Part shown: positions 7,295-17,857 of the stretch, one piece after another
How the letters are laid out: each line of letters starts with the position of its first letter
How positions within the stretch are numbered: position 1 is the first letter of the stretch
From: Planctomycetales bacterium 10988
GTDB taxonomy: Bacteria; Planctomycetota; Planctomycetia; Pirellulales; Pb10988
Direction of reading: 5' to 3'
Length of the DNA: 64,000 nucleotides
Assembly: GCA_009664345.1 (NCBI GenBank)
Contig: CP043547.1
Coordinates: 5,918,709 to 5,982,708 of the forward strand
The notes under the pieces: generated by a model
The model's database searches: none
The model's input: the letters and a program-made list of their open reading frames with translations, nothing else
Told to the model about the DNA's origin: nothing
Position numbers and translations under genes: made by a program

Positions 7295-8305
7295 TCAACG
7301 ATAGGAACCGTGGCAGGTATCGCATGCTTGGGTAAACTTGCCATACGATTCCGTGGCGAGATCGAATTGTTCTTGTTCCACTGCCGTCTTGATTCCAAGG
7401 GCTCCGGCCAGCATCTCTTCAGCAAAACCCCGGTAATCTTGATCTTCATAACCAAAGTTCGGGTCTTGAATGATTTTCCCATAAGCAGCCATGATCTCAG
7501 CCTCATGCTTGATAGCAGGCATATTCGATTCGAACTCAGTAGGATTCGCGGTCCATTGGCGAAGATCGCCACGGCCACCCTTTTCCATTCGATTCATCAG
7601 CACGCCTAAGTAAACCAATTCCCCCCAGTTCGCCTCTTCCGAGGTCACATCGGGAAAGACGACCTTGATTCCGCGAACGACTTCGTTCAGCGTCTGATAG
7701 GCGGATTCTGAAACGGAATACGATTCATCGCTTCCTTCGTCACAACTGAAAGCCGCTTGACTGAGAATGTTGCGAAGCGGAGCGGCCTCGTATTGCCAGC
7801 GGACATCCCCTCCATATTGAGCGATAATGCCAAAGAGGGTGGTCAGCGTCGTGAAGTGCATCTGAGCGGTTCGATAGTCTTGGGATTTGAATTTTCCCTT
7901 GGATCGCAAGAGCAGAGTCAGGTCATTGGTAATCTTCTTGACTTCATCTTCCAAAGTCACGGTCGAGATGTATTGCCCCCATTCCGCGTTGACGGCTGGG
8001 GTATCGATCAAGAGTCCGCCTCCGCCCATCATCGATGCTCCGGGACTTGGTGTGGAGGCAGCCATTCCCGTCATGGTCGGCAAGTTCGCAATTGAATTGG
8101 TTCCCGATTCAGAACTCTCCTGCGGGGCAAGATCACCGGGCAAACTTCCTTCGCCAACGGCTTCGAGGGCATTGTCAAAGAAGAGACTTTCCAATTCCTG
8201 ATCGAAAACCCGACGGACTTCCGGCTGCGGCGGCTGACCATAAAGGCAAACGACCGGCAGCAGTAAACCAAGCAAAATCAAAGGGCGAAACGGAGAGCGA
8301 TACAT
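7295..8305 (-). CDS. exported protein with C-terminal CxxCH haem motif
   Basis: A 336-residue exported protein with a signal peptide at residues 1-23 (MYRSPFRPLILLGLLLP...). It has a low-complexity stretch at about 60-95, a mostly helical body, and a single haem c motif C328-D-T-C-H at the extreme C terminus. That layout is typical of cytochrome c' four-helix bundles, though this protein is about twice as long. It resembles its upstream neighbour, which also ends CxSCHGTYR, so the two are probably duplicates in one transcript with a 56-nt gap. Electron transfer or gas-ligand binding is plausible; neither is shown. Confidence 0.8.
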   Translation of the reverse strand: MYRSPFRPLILLGLLLPVVCLYGQPPQPEVRRVFDQELESLFFDNALEAVGEGSLPGDLAPQESSESGTNSIANLPTMTGMAASTPSPGASMMGGGGLLIDTPAVNAEWGQYISTVTLEDEVKKITNDLTLLLRSKGKFKSQDYRTAQMHFTTLTTLFGIIAQYGGDVRWQYEAAPLRNILSQAAFSCDEGSDESYSVSESAYQTLNEVVRGIKVVFPDVTSEEANWGELVYLGVLMNRMEKGGRGDLRQWTANPTEFESNMPAIKHEAEIMAAYGKIIQDPNFGYEDQDYRGFAEEMLAGALGIKTAVEQEQFDLATESYGKFTQACDTCHGSYR

Positions 8306-8361: not shown

Positions 8362-9288
8362 TCAGCGATAGGTTCCATGACAGGAATCACATTGCAAATT
8401 GATATCGACGATCGAAGTTCGGGCGGTTTCATAGTCGGAATTTTCAGCCGCTTGAGCAGCCCGCAAGGCATTGTCTCGCATGGTTTGCGTCCAACCGATG
8501 TAGTCTTCTTCTTCACCGAGAGGATAACTTTTATCAAGCATCACCTGGGCCAAAGCGGCCAGCAGGTAGGCTTCATGGCGAATCTGGTCTTTTTGGGAAT
8601 TGAACTCTTGTTCGTTGGCGGTCCACCGCGAGAGCTTCATTCGTTGGGCGATCTCCATCCTCCGCATCACTCCGGAGAAATCGGCAATGTCATCCGCCAT
8701 GATAGCTTCGGAATTCCCTTCGGGGACCTCCGCGGGGACAGCTCCCTCTTTAATCTGCATGGCATGTTGAAAGACCTTCGATGCCATTTCAAAGGCTTCC
8801 GTATCTTGATTGTAGCTATAAAGTGATGCCTCGGCGGCTTGATCACGAAGTCCGAGAGCCTGTTCTTTCCAGGGAACGGAAGCATTCTGCTTGGCGGCAG
8901 CGTGATACAAAACCGCCAAGGTTGTCGCATTGGTCAGCGTGGTGCGGAAGCCGCGAGAGGAAAAGAAACCTTCATTCTTGACCGCTTCTTGAGACCCATC
9001 CGCCAGATTGCCGACTTCCTGCTGTATCACATCGGCAGGCAACCACTTCGACCAATCGACTGTCCGGGAGGCCATTTGATCCGAATCACCTTGGGTTTGG
9101 AACGAGGCTGGGTCCGGGAAGGTGATCTCCGCTGGAATGGCTTGCCATTGGGCCTTCTTCGCCATTAGCTCTTCTTCCGTCAAAGGACGAGCGGGCGGAC
9201 GAAATCTCCGCTGTGCTTCCACATCATTCCAAGAAAAGCTTCCCAACAAGAGGAAAAGCCCGAGCAGCAAAAGTAATTGCGTTCGCAT
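8362..9288 (-). CDS. exported protein with C-terminal CxxCH haem motif
   Basis: A 308-residue paralogue of the following gene. The ATG at 9288 gives the signal peptide MRTQLLLLLGLFLLLGS and has AGGAAC upstream; the frame is open further upstream without sense. After a Pro/Arg-rich stretch comes a helical body and a terminal haem c motif, C300-D-S-C-H. Shared landmarks with the paralogue are 'RQWTANPTEFES' against 'SRWTANEQEFNS', and the CHGxYR end. The transcription order is caspase array, then this gene, then its paralogue, with a terminator hairpin before it. A cytochrome c'-like fold is my best guess. Confidence 0.82.
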   Translation of the reverse strand: MRTQLLLLLGLFLLLGSFSWNDVEAQRRFRPPARPLTEEELMAKKAQWQAIPAEITFPDPASFQTQGDSDQMASRTVDWSKWLPADVIQQEVGNLADGSQEAVKNEGFFSSRGFRTTLTNATTLAVLYHAAAKQNASVPWKEQALGLRDQAAEASLYSYNQDTEAFEMASKVFQHAMQIKEGAVPAEVPEGNSEAIMADDIADFSGVMRRMEIAQRMKLSRWTANEQEFNSQKDQIRHEAYLLAALAQVMLDKSYPLGEEEDYIGWTQTMRDNALRAAQAAENSDYETARTSIVDINLQCDSCHGTYR

Positions 9289-9365
9289 TCCTACGTTCCT
9301 ACTTACACCGATTGCGTGTTCTTCAGTTCGTTGTTTGATGGCCAGAACGGACCTGTATCCAGAAC

Positions 9366-9410
9366 AAAAGCCGTACGATTTCAACCCAAATTATGGTCCA
9401 TCGTACGGCT
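9366..9410 (-). terminator. terminator downstream of first caspase-Sel1 gene
   Basis: AGCCGTACGAT (9369-9379) and ATCGTACGGCT (9400-9410) form a perfect 11-bp inverted repeat with a 20-nt loop. On the minus strand it is followed by TTTT, placing a terminator about 90 nt after the caspase-Sel1 stop. Confidence 0.65.
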
Positions 9411-9496: not shown

Positions 9497-12226
9497 TTAC
9501 GGATCAATGGAAAGCCCCATGCGACGAAGTTGGTTAATCGCATCTTCATCGCCATTTCTTGCGGCTTCTCGCCACCAGCGAATGGCCTCTTGTCGATCTT
9601 TGGTAATCCCGAGGCCTGAGTAGTACATGACGCCGAGATTATACTGCCCGAGGCGATTGCCCCCTTTGGCGGCAGCACGGAACCACCAGACGGCTTCCGC
9701 GTCATCTTGTTGAACTCCCCAGCCATTTTTATACATCATGCCGATGTTATTCTTGGCGGAAAGGTCCCCTTTTTCGGAAGCGGAGCGGAACAGACGCATT
9801 GCTTCGTCCATATCGGCTTCGACCCCTTTTCCAGCCAAGTACATGACGCCGAGGCATTTTTCGCCTTCGGGAAATCCTCCATCGGCGGACATCTTATAGT
9901 ATTGGAAGGCTTTGTCTTGGTTCTTCTCGACTCCCATGCCATGTTCGTAGAGAAATGCCAGCTTTTGAGCGGCGTTGGCATCACCCTGTTCGGCAGCTTT
10001 TTGGAACCAGTGAGCGGCTTCGAGATAGCTTTGGGTGACGCCTTCTCCAGACTGATACATTAGGCCGAGGTTGCGTTGGGCACCGGATTCATTTTGCTCG
10101 GCGGCCCGGCGATACCATTTCACGGCTTCGACATCATCGACTTGAACCCCATCGCCGAGGTCGTATTTCACGCCGATTTGACGAATGGAAACGGTATCTC
10201 CCTTGTCAGCGGCCAGACGATACCACCGCATCGCTTCGGAATTATTTTCCGTCATTCCTTCGCCGAAATCATACATCAAGCCCAAGTTCCGCATGGCAAT
10301 GGAATCGCCCCGATCGGCGGCCATCTTGAGCCACTTCATCGCTTCTTGGAAGTCTTGTGAGGTTCCTTCTCCGAAACGATACATGATTCCAAGATTACGT
10401 TGTGCCACAATTTCGTTCGCTTCGGCAGCCTTACGATACCAGCGAACGGCGAGGCCATCATTCACGGAAATCCCCTGCCCGGTATCATACATGACCGCCA
10501 AGTTTCGCATCGCCAGGGCATGACCTGCATCGGCGGCTTGCTCGAAATATCGAAGGGCTTTCGCAGGGTCTTTCGTGACGCCGATCCCATCTCGATAAAG
10601 AACTCCCATGTTGTTCAGAGCTAAGGCCAATTCCGTCTCGGCAGCCCGTTGAATCCATTGGGCCGCGATCGATTCATCTTTTTGCACCCCTTCTCCATAA
10701 AGGTACATGATCCCCAAGTTGTTTTGGCCCATGGCATGCCCTTGCTCGGCAGCCCGGCGATACCAGCGGACAGCTTCGTAATTATCTTCCGAAACTTGGT
10801 TTCCATTGTCGTAGAAAACCCCGAGGTTGTTCTGAGCGAGGGCATCCCCCTGTTCGGCGGCTTTGCGATACCACTCCATTGCAAGTCCTTCGTTGGTATC
10901 CACTCCTAGACCATAGTTATAGAGTCGGGCCAAGAGAACTTGAGCCAAGGGCACCTCTTGATCCGCGGCTCGCTGATACCAGCGGCTTGCTTCATAAGCG
11001 GAGGAAGGCGAATGAACCCCCAACTCCAAGCAAATCGCGTACATCGTTTGAGCGGCAGCGGAACCTTGTCGGGAGGCATCTCGCCAGGCCTCAAAGCGAT
11101 CCGCCGAGTACGAACGGAGATTATCCTCCAGGGCACTCATGGTCCACTGTTTGTTCCAGACGTCCGCCAGGCCTTGAAATTCCTTACGGATGACCGGATT
11201 GCCTTCTTTGATGGATTGCTCAAAGGCCGGGTTCGGAGTGATTTTGGGAGTTTCCTCTTCCCGCGAAGTCATCTGCGGCGGAGTGCTCGGAATGGTGGTG
11301 GAAGGCCGAGGCTTCATCGAATCGGGAGTCGCGATCGGAGTCTCTTCAACAACGACCGGGGCTCCTGTCGTGGAAATTTTTCCGGAAGTGGCCAAAACGA
11401 AGTCCCCATTGATGGTCCCCCGGAGGGTCGGCTGTTGAAATTCGAGGAAGTTCTTGGCGACATATTCCTTGGTATGCGAATTCACATAGCTGAACAGTTC
11501 GAGAATGCTAATCTTCTCGTCTTTGTTGCCGTCGGCATCTCCTTGTAGACCTTTCAGGAGGAAATGAGTAAAAACGCCATGTTGTAAATCGCTCGATTCG
11601 GTGGCGAACTCACCGACATCGCAACTGGTCAGAGTCAAGATTCCTTGCGGTGGCCGTTGCAAAGTTCCCATCAAGCTTCGAGGATTGTTCCCCATCACAC
11701 TGCGGCGACCCGGTAACTCAACACGATTACGGCAGGCATCTACAATCAACAACTTCTGCGAGGCTTCACATTCTTCAAGTTGTTTGTAAATCCAATCGAT
11801 TTCGATCAAGCTTTCCGGTTCTTCCGGATGGGCTTCGATCGGGCAAAAATAGCTTTTATCGCCGACATGCAATCCGTGACCGGCAAAGGCGACCAAGACG
11901 GTATCGTCTTTATCCACAAGATTGAGAATCAGCCGCAAAGTCTTTTCAATCAGCGGCTTGCTTGGCATTTGCTTGCGATCGGTCGCTTCATCATACATCA
12001 AGAAGACGCGTTGATCGGAAAAGCCACTTGCGAGAAGCTGTTTCTGCAAGCCTTGAATATCGGTAGAGCAATAGTCCAGGTCATTGATATGGGTGTAATT
12101 GTTAATGCCGATCAGAAGTGCGTAACGTTGCCCTTTTTCTTGAGCGAAAGCCGTGCCCCCGATCGCCAACAATACCGCACATACTCCCCAAAGAAGGCGT
12201 GACCCTCGACCGCGTACACGCACCAT
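9497..12226 (-). CDS. secreted caspase-fold (C14) protein with 14 Sel1 repeats
   Basis: A 909-residue exported protein with a signal peptide (residues 1-28, ending TAFAQ). Residues 33-280 form a peptidase C14/caspase-like domain. 'YALLIGINNY' is the first core strand, the catalytic His is H117 (AFAGHGLH) and the catalytic Cys is C165 (IVDACRNR). Residues 232-243 (DGNKDEKISILE) match an EF-hand loop, with Glu at position 6 in place of Gly. A Pro/Thr-rich linker leads to 14 Sel1 repeats (about 380-900). It is the most downstream of three tandem paralogues. Likely a Cys protease with Arg/Lys or Asp specificity and a protein-binding solenoid; the target is unknown. Confidence 0.92.
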   Translation of the reverse strand: MVRVRGRGSRLLWGVCAVLLAIGGTAFAQEKGQRYALLIGINNYTHINDLDYCSTDIQGLQKQLLASGFSDQRVFLMYDEATDRKQMPSKPLIEKTLRLILNLVDKDDTVLVAFAGHGLHVGDKSYFCPIEAHPEEPESLIEIDWIYKQLEECEASQKLLIVDACRNRVELPGRRSVMGNNPRSLMGTLQRPPQGILTLTSCDVGEFATESSDLQHGVFTHFLLKGLQGDADGNKDEKISILELFSYVNSHTKEYVAKNFLEFQQPTLRGTINGDFVLATSGKISTTGAPVVVEETPIATPDSMKPRPSTTIPSTPPQMTSREEETPKITPNPAFEQSIKEGNPVIRKEFQGLADVWNKQWTMSALEDNLRSYSADRFEAWRDASRQGSAAAQTMYAICLELGVHSPSSAYEASRWYQRAADQEVPLAQVLLARLYNYGLGVDTNEGLAMEWYRKAAEQGDALAQNNLGVFYDNGNQVSEDNYEAVRWYRRAAEQGHAMGQNNLGIMYLYGEGVQKDESIAAQWIQRAAETELALALNNMGVLYRDGIGVTKDPAKALRYFEQAADAGHALAMRNLAVMYDTGQGISVNDGLAVRWYRKAAEANEIVAQRNLGIMYRFGEGTSQDFQEAMKWLKMAADRGDSIAMRNLGLMYDFGEGMTENNSEAMRWYRLAADKGDTVSIRQIGVKYDLGDGVQVDDVEAVKWYRRAAEQNESGAQRNLGLMYQSGEGVTQSYLEAAHWFQKAAEQGDANAAQKLAFLYEHGMGVEKNQDKAFQYYKMSADGGFPEGEKCLGVMYLAGKGVEADMDEAMRLFRSASEKGDLSAKNNIGMMYKNGWGVQQDDAEAVWWFRAAAKGGNRLGQYNLGVMYYSGLGITKDRQEAIRWWREAARNGDEDAINQLRRMGLSIDP

Positions 12227-12570
12227 GGTGGACCCCTTTTTTAATTTCTCTGAAACCGAACGAAAGACTGATTCATCATTATAATATGCATCGAAAAGAG
12301 AATCACGGAATGAGCTCCGTGGCAGCTCTTCTACTTTTTATTTTAGTAGACCAAAGATAGGCCGACTAAAGCTTCATCGTACTTTTATCCTAATATCTTT
12401 TAAATGAAAAGGAATTTTGTTTCTTTGAAAAGTTGAAGAAATCTTTCTCAACCTTCCCGAGCTTGGGCAATCTGGAATTTGAAGCATCAATCAAGCCGGA
12501 GTCAGGAAGCCGGCACGGTTGCGCTGGCTTCCTGATTCAAACCTCTACTGATCGAAAGAACTCAAGATAT
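12227..12570 (-). other. intergenic region between caspase-Sel1 genes 1 and 2
   Basis: 344 nt that must hold the 3' end signal of the second caspase gene and any promoter of the first. A perfect 10-bp hairpin, TCAGGAAGCC (12502-12511) with GGCTTCCTGA (12526-12535), lies 36 nt after the second gene's stop but has no T tract. A smaller hairpin CACGGA/TCCGTG is at 12304-12321. I see no gene. Confidence 0.5.
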
Positions 12571-15321
12571 TTAGAGATTTTCACTTCGACCGGTGAGTTC
12601 TTGAATTCGTTTAATCGCGACATCGTTTCCTTGATCGGCAGCCTTGCGATAGAGCCGCAGGGCTTCTTGCAAATCACGGTTGACTCCGAGTCCATTTTCA
12701 TAGAGATACGCAAGGTTCGATTGCCCATATTCATTCCCTTGATCGGCAGCCTTGCGATACCATTTGGCGGCTTCGGAATCATTCTGCGAAACTCCCCAAC
12801 CATTGCGATACATGACCCCGAGGTTGTTTTGAGCAGTGGCATAATTCTGATCCGCCGCGAGTCGATACCATTTGACCGCTTGAGCATAGTCTTGTTTGAC
12901 CGACCAACCATTTTGATACATCAAACCAACGCGGTTTTGAGAGTTCGCATCGCCTTGGTTTCCTGCTTTCAAGTAAAGTGGGAAGGCTTTGTCATAACTC
13001 TGTTCCGTTCCGAAGCCATTGGTATAGCACCAACCGAGATTGTTTAAGGCTTTCAAATGATCTTGCTCGACGGCTTTTTTATACCAGTAGACGGCTTGCT
13101 CGGGATTTTTCTCAACTCCCCAGCCATTGTGGTACATCCAGGCTAGGTTATTTTGGGAATTGGCATGCCCTAACTCGGCGGCTTTGCGGAACCAACGAAC
13201 GGCTTCGTAGTCGTCTTCAGTTACTCCGGTGCCGTAATTCAACAAGACGCCAAGATTATCCATCGCGTAGAGATTTCCATTTTCGGCACCTTTACGATAC
13301 CACTCGGCGGCTTTGGCATAGCTTTGCGGAACACCAGTCCCTCGATAATACATCACGCCGATTTCATTTTGGGCCAGGTTGTAATTCAGTTCGGCGGCCT
13401 TTTGAATCCAGCGAATCCCTTCACTGAGGTCCGAACTCACATCGCCCAGGCCGTCTCGGTAAATGATTCCCATGTTATACATCGCATAGGAATTGTTTTG
13501 ATCGGCCGCTTTGCGATACCAATTCAAGGCCTCACGGTAATTCTGAGAGACCCCATTGCCACGGGCATAGAGAAGCCCCATGTTGAATTGCCCTTGGGCA
13601 TAACCTCCATCGGCAGACTTTTTGCACCATTCGAAAGCTTTCGAATAATTCTGGCTGACACCGATACCTTCTCGATACATATATCCGAGCATGTCTTGAG
13701 CGGCGAGTTGGCCTCCGTTTCCGGCTTTCTCAAACCAGTAAGCTGCCGTGGAAGTATCCTTGCGGACGCCGGTCCCTTCGTAGTAAATCCAACCCATCCG
13801 TTCTTGGGAATAGGCGAAGTCTTGTTCGGCAGCCATGCGGTGCCAGCGGGCGGCTTCGGCATCATCTTTGATGACTCCCCAGCCATTGGCATACATCGTG
13901 CCTAACCCGGATTGGGCATTCGGGAAGTTCTGATCCGCGGATCGACGGAACCAACGCATGGCCTCTTGATAATCCTGAGGGATATCTTCTCCACGTTGAT
14001 AGAGCCAAGCGAGATTGCTTTGGGAAAGGGCATCTCCATTACTTGCCGCTCGCAAATACCACTTTTTGGCAGCGTAGCCATCTTTGTCGACGCCGGAGCC
14101 CCCGTGATACATGCGGGCAAGGCGGAATTGAGCAAAGATTTCCCCTTGTTCCGCGGCCTTTTCATACCACTCTCGTGCGGCAGAAAGGTCTTTGTTCGTA
14201 TGAATTCCCAATTCCAAGCAACCCGCATAGAGCGTTTGCCCGGCGGCTCCACCGGATTCGGCAACTTGCTTCCATTCCGGGAAGCGGAACTTGCCCATCT
14301 CTTCCAACTTTTCGGTAAAGGTCGTATCTCCAGGAGCGCGAAGGTAGGCCTCGCGGATTCGCTTCACTTCTTCCTTCGACTCGTCGGAAGCCAGTTCCGA
14401 AGGGGTCATCGTCGGAGAAGTGATCTTGGAAGAAGTCGAACTGGAACCCGTCGTCAAGGTCACCGGCTTGGCAGTTCCTGATACCGTCGCGACCACGAAA
14501 TCCCCGTTGATCGTTCCGCGTAAGGTTGGTTGTTGGAATTCGAGGAACTCCTTGGCGACATATTCTTTGGTGTTTTGATTGACATAGCTGAAGAGTTCGA
14601 GGATGCGGATTTCACCATCGCCATTGGCGTCCGCTTGTCCTTCCAACCCTCGCAGCAAGAAGTGCGTGAAAACTCCATGCGAAAGATCACTGGCTTCCGT
14701 GGCGAACTCGCCGACATCACAACTGGTGAGTGTCAGAATTCCTTGCGGGGGACGTTGCAAGGTTCCCATCAAACTTCGAGGGTTGTTTCCAATTACACTT
14801 CGTCGCCCCGGCATCTCGACGCGATTTCGGCAAGCATCCACAATCAACAGCTTTTGGCCTGCTTGACAATTTTCCATCTGCTCGTAAATCCACTCGATCG
14901 AAAGCAACGAGTCTTTCTCAGTAGGATGGGCATCGAGCGGGCAGAAGAAACTCTCTTCCCCAAGATGCAAGCCATGTCCGGCAAAGGCCACCAACACGGT
15001 ATCGTCTTTGTCCGCCAAGTTCAGAATCACCCGCAAGGTTCGTTCGATGAGCGGTTTGGTGGGCAGCATCTTGCGATCGGTGGCCGAGTCATGCATTAAG
15101 AAGACACGTTGGTCGGCAAACCCACTGTTTAAGAGTTGTTTATGAAGCCCTTGAATATCGGTCGAACAGTATTCCAAGTCCGAGATATGGGTGTAATCGT
15201 TGATGCCAATCAATAAGGCATAACGATCTCCCTTCTCTTCGGCCATCCCCAGCCCAACAAAGATCAGGGGAACCATCCAACTTAAACAAAACGACTTGGC
15301 CTTCCACAGTCCAGATAACAT
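12571..15321 (-). CDS. secreted caspase-fold (C14) protein with 15 Sel1 repeats
   Basis: A 916-residue paralogue of its neighbours. Signal peptide 1-27; caspase-like domain about 32-280 with catalytic His H116 (AFAGHGLH) and Cys C164 (VDACRNR). Residues 231-242 (DANGDGEIRILE) are a perfect EF-hand loop (D-x-N-x-D-G-x-I-x-x-x-E), following the core strand GVFTHFLLRGL. A Ser/Thr-rich linker (about 280-310) precedes 15 Sel1 repeats. Calcium control is known for metacaspases; whether this loop binds calcium is inference. The intergenic gap of 187 nt to the third paralogue could contain its own promoter. Confidence 0.92.
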   Translation of the reverse strand: MLSGLWKAKSFCLSWMVPLIFVGLGMAEEKGDRYALLIGINDYTHISDLEYCSTDIQGLHKQLLNSGFADQRVFLMHDSATDRKMLPTKPLIERTLRVILNLADKDDTVLVAFAGHGLHLGEESFFCPLDAHPTEKDSLLSIEWIYEQMENCQAGQKLLIVDACRNRVEMPGRRSVIGNNPRSLMGTLQRPPQGILTLTSCDVGEFATEASDLSHGVFTHFLLRGLEGQADANGDGEIRILELFSYVNQNTKEYVAKEFLEFQQPTLRGTINGDFVVATVSGTAKPVTLTTGSSSTSSKITSPTMTPSELASDESKEEVKRIREAYLRAPGDTTFTEKLEEMGKFRFPEWKQVAESGGAAGQTLYAGCLELGIHTNKDLSAAREWYEKAAEQGEIFAQFRLARMYHGGSGVDKDGYAAKKWYLRAASNGDALSQSNLAWLYQRGEDIPQDYQEAMRWFRRSADQNFPNAQSGLGTMYANGWGVIKDDAEAARWHRMAAEQDFAYSQERMGWIYYEGTGVRKDTSTAAYWFEKAGNGGQLAAQDMLGYMYREGIGVSQNYSKAFEWCKKSADGGYAQGQFNMGLLYARGNGVSQNYREALNWYRKAADQNNSYAMYNMGIIYRDGLGDVSSDLSEGIRWIQKAAELNYNLAQNEIGVMYYRGTGVPQSYAKAAEWYRKGAENGNLYAMDNLGVLLNYGTGVTEDDYEAVRWFRKAAELGHANSQNNLAWMYHNGWGVEKNPEQAVYWYKKAVEQDHLKALNNLGWCYTNGFGTEQSYDKAFPLYLKAGNQGDANSQNRVGLMYQNGWSVKQDYAQAVKWYRLAADQNYATAQNNLGVMYRNGWGVSQNDSEAAKWYRKAADQGNEYGQSNLAYLYENGLGVNRDLQEALRLYRKAADQGNDVAIKRIQELTGRSENL

Positions 15322-15508
15322 AAAGCCCCCCTATTTGTTGGCGATCGAATGAACAAGCTTTTAAAAAATAAAGATAGATAGCCAGTGATTCTTTCCTGAA
15401 TACGAATGACTTCAGCATTCAGATCTCTGTTTTTAGTTATATGATTTCGTAATTTTAGACTTCTGTCGGATTCATTGAACAAAGATAACGATCCTCACAC
15501 CTACATCC

Positions 15509-17857
15509 TCAATCAGACGAAAGTTCCTTGAGCCGATCTTTAGCCATCGAATACCCTTTGTCGGCGGCCTGTTGATACCACTTTTTCGCCTCCGCCAAGT
15601 CTTTGTTAACGCCCCAGCCGTTTTCGAATAACACGCCGACTCGATAGGCCGCAGGCGCGTAATTTAGATGCGCTGCACGGCGATACCATTTCAAGGCTTC
15701 CAAGTAATCTTTGGAAACAATTTCACCTTCCTCGTAATACCTTCCCATTCGATAGACAGCGGCCCATTGGTCCTTTTCGGCCGCTTTGAGGCACCAATCA
15801 AAAGCCTTTTGAAGGTCTCTCTCAACACCCCAGCCATTGGAATACATATAGCTGAGCGAATAGTAGGCTTCTCGATATTTGAGTCTTGCGGAAAGTCGAT
15901 ACCACTTGATGGCTTCTTGATAGTCCTGAGAAACTCCTCGACCCGTTTGATAAAGAAGTCCTAAAGCATATTGAGCGGCGGCATAGTCATGCACTGCCAC
16001 TAACCGATACCACTTTGCGGCCTCCGCATAACTTTGAGAAACTTCAATACCTTTCTCGTAAAACTGTCCTAGTTTATATTGGGCATTCCAAGAGTTCAGC
16101 TCGGCGGCCTGGCGGGTGTATTGCAAAGCCTTGGAAAGGTCCTTTTCAACGTGCCGCCCATATTCATGATAGTAAGCAAGGTTAATCAGCGCGTCCGTAC
16201 CTCCTTGATCCGCGGCGGAGTGAATGAGTTCTAATCCTTTTTCAACATCCTGCTCAACTCCGCCGAGTCCGTTCAAATACACCTGTCCCAAATAGGTCAA
16301 TGCGGGGAGATGCCCGTGGTCAATTGCTCGTTGAATCCAGCGAAGGCCTTCGCTTTGATCTTGCTCAATCTTCCCATAACCGACGAGGTAGATGTCTCCT
16401 AAACGTATCTCCGAATGGCCAAAATTCTGCGCTGCGGCCATTTGGAGCAATGCTAGCCCTTTTTCTTTGTCTTCGATGTATTCTCCTTGGTCGTCCTGGA
16501 CAAAAGACGCTCCAAAGAAATAGAGGTAACCCAGGTTGTGTTGTGCAAAGCAGGACCCTTGATCAACGGCTTTTTGATACCACGTGCGTGCGAGTTCCCA
16601 ATCCATTCCAATCTCGGGATGGGGATTCTGGTGATGCATCCGGGCATATCGGTACTGAGCAAAACTTTCCCCTTGCTCCGCAGCAGTCTGGTACCACTTC
16701 AAGGCGTCTACCACGTTTTTATCTGTAAAAACACCGGTTTCAAGACAAGCTGCATACAGGGTCTGGGCAGCGGTATCTCCTGCGAGTGCCTGTTGTTTCC
16801 ATTCCTCAAAGCTGGCTTCCTCGAAGCGTTGCAACTCGGCCACAAAGGTTTGATCCCTGGGATTCAATCCATATCGATCCGTAAATTGTTGTAAATCCGT
16901 TTTTGCCGAACTGGTGGAAACCTCCTTCGCTTGGACTTCCATCGAGTCTTCACGACTTGGGACATTTAATTCGGGAAGAACCTTGTCATTCGACTCCGCT
17001 GAAGTTCCAGAAACCGTCGCTACCACGAAGTCTCCATTGATGGTTCCGCGAAGGGTAGGCTGTTGGAGTTCAAAGAAATTCTTGCCGACATAGTCTTTGG
17101 TTTGTCGATTGACATAGGCAAAAATTTCAAGGATGCCGATCTCGCCATCTTGATTCATATCCGCTTGCCCACTGAGTCCTTCCAACAAAAAGTGGGTAAA
17201 GACTCCATGAGATAGGTCTTCCGCTTCCATCGCGAACTCGCCAATGTCACAACTAGTGAGTGTCAAGATTCCTTGCGGTGGAGCCTGAATGGTATTCATC
17301 AACCCTTGAGGACTATTGCCTAAGACACTTCGGCGACCAGGAAGTTCAAGCCGATTGCGGCAGGCATCCACAATCAACAACTTCTGCCCGGCGGAACATT
17401 GCTCTAACTGCTCATAAACCCACTTCACGGATAATAAAGTGCTCTTCTCCTCCGGGTGAGCATCCAAGGGGCAGAAGAAACTTTCTTCCCCAAGATGCAA
17501 ACCATGCCCGGAAAAGGCGACCAGAATCGTATCGCCTTTCTGGGCCAAGTTGGTGACCATCTTGAGCAATCGCTCAATGGCCGTTTTGCTCGGAAGAAGC
17601 CGACGATCCTCGACCTCTTCATGCATCATGTAGACACGGTTCTCATCAAAACCGCTTTTGAGAAGTTGCTTTTGCAGTCCTTGAATATCGGTCGCACAGT
17701 ATTCTAAGTCAGACAGATAGTCATAATCATTGATGCCTATTAAGAGAGCGTAGCGAGTTCCAGCTTGGGGGGACTGAGCAAACAAAAAATGAGCCATTAA
17801 GCAGAAAAACATTCCACTCAAGGCTAAACGCTTAAATCCTCGCCAAGGCAACCACAT
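15509..17857 (-). CDS. secreted caspase-fold (C14) protein with 11 Sel1 repeats
   Basis: A 782-residue member of the tandem set and the first to be transcribed. Signal peptide 1-28; caspase-like domain with H118 (AFSGHGLH) and C166 (IVDACRNR). The EF-hand-like loop is at 233-244 (DMNQDGEIGILE). Only 11 Sel1 repeats follow, more diverged than in the other two copies, so repeat number has changed since duplication. Its upstream region contains two copies of a GGTCT-N7-AGACC palindrome. Function as for the paralogues: probably an exported Cys peptidase or a signalling scaffold. Confidence 0.92.
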   Translation of the reverse strand: MWLPWRGFKRLALSGMFFCLMAHFLFAQSPQAGTRYALLIGINDYDYLSDLEYCATDIQGLQKQLLKSGFDENRVYMMHEEVEDRRLLPSKTAIERLLKMVTNLAQKGDTILVAFSGHGLHLGEESFFCPLDAHPEEKSTLLSVKWVYEQLEQCSAGQKLLIVDACRNRLELPGRRSVLGNSPQGLMNTIQAPPQGILTLTSCDIGEFAMEAEDLSHGVFTHFLLEGLSGQADMNQDGEIGILEIFAYVNRQTKDYVGKNFFELQQPTLRGTINGDFVVATVSGTSAESNDKVLPELNVPSREDSMEVQAKEVSTSSAKTDLQQFTDRYGLNPRDQTFVAELQRFEEASFEEWKQQALAGDTAAQTLYAACLETGVFTDKNVVDALKWYQTAAEQGESFAQYRYARMHHQNPHPEIGMDWELARTWYQKAVDQGSCFAQHNLGYLYFFGASFVQDDQGEYIEDKEKGLALLQMAAAQNFGHSEIRLGDIYLVGYGKIEQDQSEGLRWIQRAIDHGHLPALTYLGQVYLNGLGGVEQDVEKGLELIHSAADQGGTDALINLAYYHEYGRHVEKDLSKALQYTRQAAELNSWNAQYKLGQFYEKGIEVSQSYAEAAKWYRLVAVHDYAAAQYALGLLYQTGRGVSQDYQEAIKWYRLSARLKYREAYYSLSYMYSNGWGVERDLQKAFDWCLKAAEKDQWAAVYRMGRYYEEGEIVSKDYLEALKWYRRAAHLNYAPAAYRVGVLFENGWGVNKDLAEAKKWYQQAADKGYSMAKDRLKELSSD

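What the first reader, a model, noticed from the sequence alone, without database searches (positions are those of the whole stretch)
9497..17857. Three tandem secreted caspase-Sel1 proteins with an embedded EF-hand-like loop
Three paralogues in a row keep the His/Cys dyad (AGHG or SGHG, and DACRN) and a signal peptide. Each also has a 12-residue loop matching D-x-N-x-D-x-x-I-x-x-x-E right after the GVFTHFLL strand. Sel1 repeat number varies (14, 15, 11). The dyads and loops are seen directly; metacaspase calcium dependence is known. A calcium-switched exported protease family with variable recognition solenoids is inference. Local amplification suggests selection for diversity.
Basis: partly seen in the sequence, partly recalled or inferred. 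Interest (0 to 1): 0.65.

Follow-up and report, generated by a model that had tools for sequence, protein, structure and literature searches.

The report
Exported bacterial caspases with calcium-type loop
Three neighbouring genes encode exported caspase-like proteases with repeat-built binding arms, and their catalytic domain carries a calcium-binding-type loop that is widespread in related bacterial caspases rather than special to these three.

Summary
Confirmed: three minus-strand genes (9497-12226, 12571-15321, 15509-17857) encode signal peptide + Peptidase_C14 + 14/15/11 Sel1 repeats, each with an intact His-Cys dyad and a 12-residue D-x-N-x-D-x-x-I-x-x-x-E loop. The dyad aligns with MALT1/metacaspase catalytic residues, and AlphaFold (pLDDT 91) puts the loop in a helix-loop-strand-helix exactly as in an EF-hand.

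Reinterpreted: the loop is not private to these genes. It occurs in all seven C14 paralogues of this genome and in 149/253 Planctomycetota and 17/60 Bacteroidota C14 domains sampled; Pseudomonadota have a shorter hairpin (0/27). Ligand positions are conserved together and lost together, good evidence for real Ca2+ binding. It is not the metacaspase Ca2+ site, which is missing, so metacaspase calcium dependence cannot be borrowed. By topology it lies on the edge away from the active site; a constitutive structural Ca2+ staple is likelier than a switch.

Not supported: selection for diversity (solenoid dN/dS about 0.27). Association of loop with export: strong in discovery, one of two fresh samples weakly positive, not significant after tree-based pairing. 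C14-Sel1 architecture has been known since 2012. Acid-side-chain convergence could not be measured (no coordinates).

The parts
9497..12226 (-). P0001: signal peptide + C14 + 14 Sel1 repeats, 909 aa
12571..15321 (-). P0002: signal peptide + C14 + 15 Sel1 repeats, 916 aa
15509..17857 (-). P0003: signal peptide + C14 + 11 Sel1 repeats, 782 aa
12143..12226 (-). signal peptide region of P0001 (about aa 1-28)
   Evidence: hydrophobic core and AFA-Q site read in the sequence; hydropathy 2.66; no dedicated predictor run
15238..15321 (-). signal peptide region of P0002 (about aa 1-28)
   Evidence: hydropathy 2.28
17774..17857 (-). signal peptide region of P0003 (about aa 1-28)
   Evidence: hydropathy 2.2
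11468..12127 (-). C14 domain of P0001 (aa 34-253); His117, Cys165
14566..15225 (-). C14 domain of P0002 (aa 33-252); His116, Cys164
17096..17758 (-). C14 domain of P0003 (aa 34-254); His118, Cys166
11498..11533 (-). EF-hand-type loop of P0001, DGNKDEKISILE (Glu instead of Gly at loop position 6)
14596..14631 (-). EF-hand-type loop of P0002, DANGDGEIRILE
   Evidence: helix-loop-strand-helix in the model
17126..17161 (-). EF-hand-type loop of P0003, DMNQDGEIGILE
16910..17014 (-). low-confidence, probably flexible linker between C14 and Sel1 in P0003 (about aa 282-316)
   Evidence: pLDDT below 50, but 165-315 is all low there because only 4 rows were given
15512..16912 (-). Sel1 solenoid of P0003 (helices from about aa 317 to 781)
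   Evidence: pLDDT mostly 85-96

Best explanation
Each gene makes an exported orthocaspase: a signal peptide sends it across the inner membrane; a C14 catalytic domain closest in fold to the MALT1 paracaspase carries a His-Cys dyad; a short, probably flexible linker joins it to a rod of Sel1 repeats that holds it on a partner or substrate in the periplasm or at the surface. An EF-hand-type loop joins the two last helices of the catalytic domain and most likely binds one Ca2+ ion all the time in a Ca2+-rich compartment, pinning these helices at the edge of the domain away from the active site. Thus Ca2+ would be a stabiliser, and perhaps a requirement for correct folding after export, rather than a fast switch. 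The three genes, a fourth C14-Sel1 gene elsewhere and a tandem of three C14 genes at 4.80 Mb are one paralogous family of this genome. Shown: architecture, dyad, loop, homologues, ligand conservation. Predicted: fold. Inferred: Ca2+ binding, its role, location, substrate.
For: Pfam architecture. Dyad: GHG and DACR align with AGHG and DMCR of MALT1 and with metacaspases. Model of the P0002 domain: pLDDT 91.4, pTM 0.89; helix 191-203, loop from Asp205, strand 211-213 (loop positions 7-9), helix 214-233 holding Glu216 (position 12). Best PDB folds are MALT1 structures, E 6e-15, TM to the caspase-only entry 3v4o 0.66/0.74. In 160 same-length homologous segments Asp1 91%, Asp/Asn3 89%, Asp/Asn5 93%, Glu12 88%; 123 keep all four and 11 keep none or one, never equalled in 2000 column shuffles; position 8 is Val/Ile/Leu in 99% of 105, while positions 2, 4, 7, 10 and 11 vary. 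Sub-threshold Pfam EF-hand matches in 13 of 67 homologues not chosen by motif. A loop profile finds calmodulins and other EF-hand proteins in the PDB (its rows were chosen by motif, so partly circular). The Sel1 part is a confident continuous solenoid. The characterised orthocaspase MaOC1 is Ca2+-independent (PMC5756287, PMC8283722), so an activity switch is not the default expectation.
Against: No Ca2+ or protease assay exists. An isolated, unpaired EF-hand can bind Ca2+ weakly. P0001 lacks the usual Gly at loop position 6. Two homologues (L233, L251) look cytosolic with a perfect loop, which does not fit a purely extracytoplasmic role.
Confidence: 0.55

Rival explanations
1. Calcium switch: Ca2+ binding to the loop turns the exported protease on, so that it is silent in the Ca2+-poor cytoplasm and active outside.
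For: Ligand set conserved and lost as a block. Loop-bearing domains more often follow an export signal: 49/55 against 30/44 in the two fresh samples, p 0.012. Helix 191-203 starts just after the loop that shapes the substrate pocket, so a movement could be passed on (inference).
Against: The metacaspase Ca2+ site is absent and is not the same element. MaOC1 is Ca2+-independent (PMC5756287). The first fresh sample alone did not replicate the export association (12/16 against 14/23, p 0.49), and tree-independent pairs are only suggestive (about 7 to 2, p 0.18). Outside the cytoplasm Ca2+ is usually plentiful, so little switching is expected.
Confidence: 0.22
2. The loop keeps an EF-hand-like shape but binds no metal in these proteins; the acids cap helices and make hydrogen bonds.
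For: Unpaired EF-hand; P0001 has Glu at position 6; homologues with the same loop length but no ligands exist and keep the position-8 residue.
Against: Joint conservation of exactly the Ca2+ ligand positions, with neighbours free to vary, is hard to explain by capping.
Confidence: 0.15
3. The three proteins are exported scaffolds in which the caspase domain no longer cuts; the Sel1 rod does the work.
For: Planctomycetes are among the phyla with the most dyad-less C14 domains (64% intact; PMC3501461); C14 changes slowly, Sel1 quickly.
Against: Dyad and surrounding motifs are intact in all seven paralogues and C14 is the most constrained part.
Confidence: 0.08

Closest known systems
Orthocaspases / prokaryotic C14 with Sel1 repeats (Asplund-Samuelsson 2012, PMC3501461)
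   Same: C14 domain with His-Cys dyad, Sel1 in 40 of 671 prokaryotic sequences, frequent N-terminal hydrophobic segment
   Different: EF-hand and calcium are not mentioned there; here three tandem copies plus a fourth, with an embedded EF-hand-type loop
MALT1 paracaspase (PDB 3v4o, 8v4x, 3uo8)
   Same: Closest solved fold; DxCR around the catalytic Cys; dyad aligns
   Different: No Ig or death domain here; that MALT1 lacks the EF-hand loop and is not exported is from general knowledge, not tested
Type I and II metacaspases (TbMCA2, CgMCA-I, AtMC4, AtMC9)
   Same: Caspase fold, dyad, sequence similarity of the p20 half
   Different: Their Ca2+ site (Asp198, Asp214, Asp245 of CgMCA-I, PMC9622860) is not conserved here; their Ca2+ loop is elsewhere
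Archaeal orthocaspases with an EF-hand motif (7 proteins, PMC6426788)
   Same: EF-hand motif together with C14
   Different: Described there as an additional domain in archaea; its position was not compared with the loop here
Periplasmic Sel1 proteins (MotX, AlgK, ExoR, HcpC-type)
   Same: Exported Sel1 solenoids
   Different: No protease domain; scores far below the curated cut-offs

Membership tests
Orthocaspase (prokaryotic peptidase C14) | C14/p20 domain over the curated cut-off | tested here: met
   69.7-75.4 bits against 21.4
Orthocaspase (prokaryotic peptidase C14) | His-Cys catalytic dyad | tested here: met
   GHG and DACR in all seven paralogues, aligned to MALT1
Orthocaspase (prokaryotic peptidase C14) | cleavage after Arg/Lys | not testable with these tools
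   needs an assay
Metacaspase (types I-III) | Ca2+ site Asp198/Asp214/Asp245 (CgMCA-I numbering) | tested here: not met
   Asp214 falls on Ile, Ile, Val; Asp198 on Lys, Glu, Glu; Asp245 lies beyond the alignment and was not placed
Paracaspase (MALT1 type I) | fold closest to MALT1 | tested here: met
Paracaspase (MALT1 type I) | Ig and death domains | tested here: not met
   one search lists none
EF-hand Ca2+ loop | 12-residue ligand pattern 1-3-5-8-12 | tested here: met
EF-hand Ca2+ loop | helix-loop-helix with a short strand at positions 7-9 | tested here: met
   predicted structure
EF-hand Ca2+ loop | match to a Pfam EF-hand model over the cut-off | tested here: not met
   none for the window proteins even at E 10; sub-threshold in 13 of 67 homologues
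EF-hand Ca2+ loop | side chains converge on a Ca2+ ion | not testable with these tools
   no coordinates returned
EACC1-associated caspase (NF047832) | curated cut-off 140 bits | tested here: not met
   69.5-77.1 bits

The most novel reading that the evidence does not exclude
Bacterial caspases with the EF-hand loop form a Ca2+-dependent class in which Ca2+ marks the compartment: the domain matures or becomes active only after export, using a Ca2+ site unrelated to that of metacaspases. This would overturn the view that orthocaspases are Ca2+-independent.
Probability: 0.2. Interest if true: 0.65.

Novelty: new variant of a known kind. Interest (0 to 1): 0.42.

Why it matters
The literature read here treats orthocaspases as p10-less and Ca2+-independent on the strength of few enzymes. 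About half of the C14 domains sampled in Planctomycetota and Bacteroidota (166 of 313) carry what looks like an intact EF-hand Ca2+ site within the catalytic domain. If it binds Ca2+, bacterial caspases acquired Ca2+ control or stabilisation separately from metacaspases, and a simple loop-mutant test can decide it.

Tried and rejected
(1) 'The loop is special to these three genes': rejected, family-wide. (2) 'Metacaspase-type Ca2+ site': rejected on two ligands. (3) 'Selection for diversity': dN/dS does not support it; most dS values are saturated, so only weak inference is possible. (4) 'Loop strictly tied to export': seen in the discovery set (25/26 against 16/31, p 2e-4); rule written down and tested on fresh sets: p 0.49, then p 0.045, together p 0.012; tree-independent pairs about 7 to 2, not significant. 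Left as suggestive. (5) Defence system: only a generic 'caspase' model matches meaningfully in PADLOC; no defence neighbours were seen among the flanking genes examined. (6) Promoter and terminator scans gave no more sites than shuffles. (7) One genome-contig scan found only four distant loci. (8) Full-length model with four rows gave a poor C14 part.

Full report
What is there. Three minus-strand genes lie head to tail at 9497-12226, 12571-15321 and 15509-17857. Each encodes a signal-peptide-like N-terminus, a Peptidase_C14 domain (70-75 bits, cut-off 21.4) and 14, 15 or 11 Sel1 repeats. His117/Cys165, His116/Cys164 and His118/Cys166 form the dyad. The loops are DGNKDEKISILE, DANGDGEIRILE and DMNQDGEIGILE.

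Family in this genome. The 6.65 Mb genome holds seven close C14 paralogues: the three here, a fourth C14-Sel1 gene at 1.677 Mb (L068; 10 Sel1 repeats) and a tandem of three at 4.80 Mb without Sel1 (L069). All seven have the dyad and the loop. No genome of the same family or genus was among the relatives returned, so the age of the duplications is unknown.

Fold. A model of the P0002 domain from 67 homologues has pLDDT 91.4 and pTM 0.89. GVFTHFLL lies in helix 191-203; the loop runs from Asp205 to Glu216; a short strand covers loop positions 7-9; helix 214-233 follows and contains Glu216. This is the EF-hand layout. Foldseek's best PDB matches are MALT1 paracaspases, then metacaspases, caspases and the bacterial GSU0716. 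Sequence alignment puts GHG and DACR on MALT1's GHG and DMCR. In this topology the first helix follows the strand that ends at the active-site edge, so the loop sits on the opposite edge; this is reasoning, not measurement, since no coordinates were available.

The loop across relatives. Of 340 distinct C14 domains extracted, the motif is in 149 of 253 from Planctomycetota, 17 of 60 from Bacteroidota and 0 of 27 from Pseudomonadota; the last have a shorter connection, mostly 25 residues for the whole segment against 32. Pseudomonadota were drawn as the best matches to the Pfam model, so rarer loop-bearing members there may be missed. In 160 segments of the standard length, Asp1 is kept in 91%, Asp/Asn3 in 89%, Asp/Asn5 in 93%, Glu12 in 88%; 123 keep all four, 11 keep none or one, and no shuffle of 2000 was as concerted. 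Position 8 is Val/Ile/Leu in 99% of the 105 segments first examined, while positions 2, 4, 7, 10 and 11 vary. This is what Ca2+ ligand selection should look like. Related sequences can inflate such shuffles, but the loop state changes 29 times on a tree built without the loop, so the pattern is not one event.

Is it the metacaspase calcium site? No. The Ca2+ of C. glabrata metacaspase is held by Asp198, Asp214, Asp245, Gly196 and Thr242 (PMC9622860). In the profile alignment Asp214 falls on Ile, Ile and Val of the three proteins and Asp198 on Lys, Glu and Glu. The EF-hand loop is also distinct from the metacaspase '280-loop' (PMC5756287), which as far as the alignment and general knowledge of these structures show comes earlier in the chain. 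Reported orthocaspase activity is Ca2+-independent (MaOC1), but whether MaOC1 has the loop was not checked.

Switch or staple. On the first sample, loop-bearing domains nearly always followed an export signal (25 of 26 against 16 of 31). The rule was fixed in the notebook before fresh loci were fetched. The first fresh set did not confirm it (12 of 16 against 14 of 23, p 0.49); the second did weakly (37 of 39 against 16 of 21, p 0.045); together p 0.012. Tree-independent pairs leaned the same way, about 7 to 2, p 0.18. Two loop-bearing domains look cytosolic (L233, L251). I read this as suggestive only. Position, frequent gain or loss, and a Ca2+-rich destination make a structural ion the likelier role.

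Diversity claim. Between paralogues C14 is 64-81% identical and the Sel1 part 32-41%; where dS could be estimated (P0001-P0002) dN/dS is about 0.27 for Sel1 and 0.06 for C14. The solenoid is less constrained or specialised, with no sign of positive selection. Tandem C14 genes are not rare: a Bacteroidota genome has at least eight in 20 kb (L281).

Known or new. C14-Sel1 has been known since 2012 (40 of 671 prokaryotic sequences). EF-hand motifs were noted in seven archaeal orthocaspases as an additional domain. In eight paper searches I found no description of an EF-hand loop within the bacterial caspase domain; the library lacks most subscription journals, so this is not proof of novelty. Filed as a new variant of a known kind.

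Noticed in passing
7295-8305 (-) and 8362-9384 (-): Two proteins of 336 and 340 aa with hydrophobic N-termini, each ending in a c-type haem motif (CDTCHGSYR, CDSCHGTYR), lie directly downstream of the caspase genes on the same strand, 113 bp from P0001; no Pfam or NCBIfam match.
   Followed up: partly
L069 (genome 4.794-4.812 Mb): Second tandem of three C14 genes in the same genome, EF-type loop kept, but with a C-terminal region without a Pfam match in place of Sel1 repeats.
   Followed up: partly
L281 (Bacteroidota genome G799, contig 96, 329-349 kb): At least eight C14 genes in tandem within 20 kb.
   Followed up: no
L055 (another planctomycete of the same class): Exported C14-Sel1 protein with about 13 Sel1 repeats whose loop has lost the Ca2+ ligands (AVNRSGVVTWNSLSGYV): a natural comparison for the loop's role.
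   Followed up: no
L049, L048, L071, L072: Caspase domains without an export signal that keep about the same helix-loop-helix length but have lost the loop's acidic ligands.
   Followed up: partly
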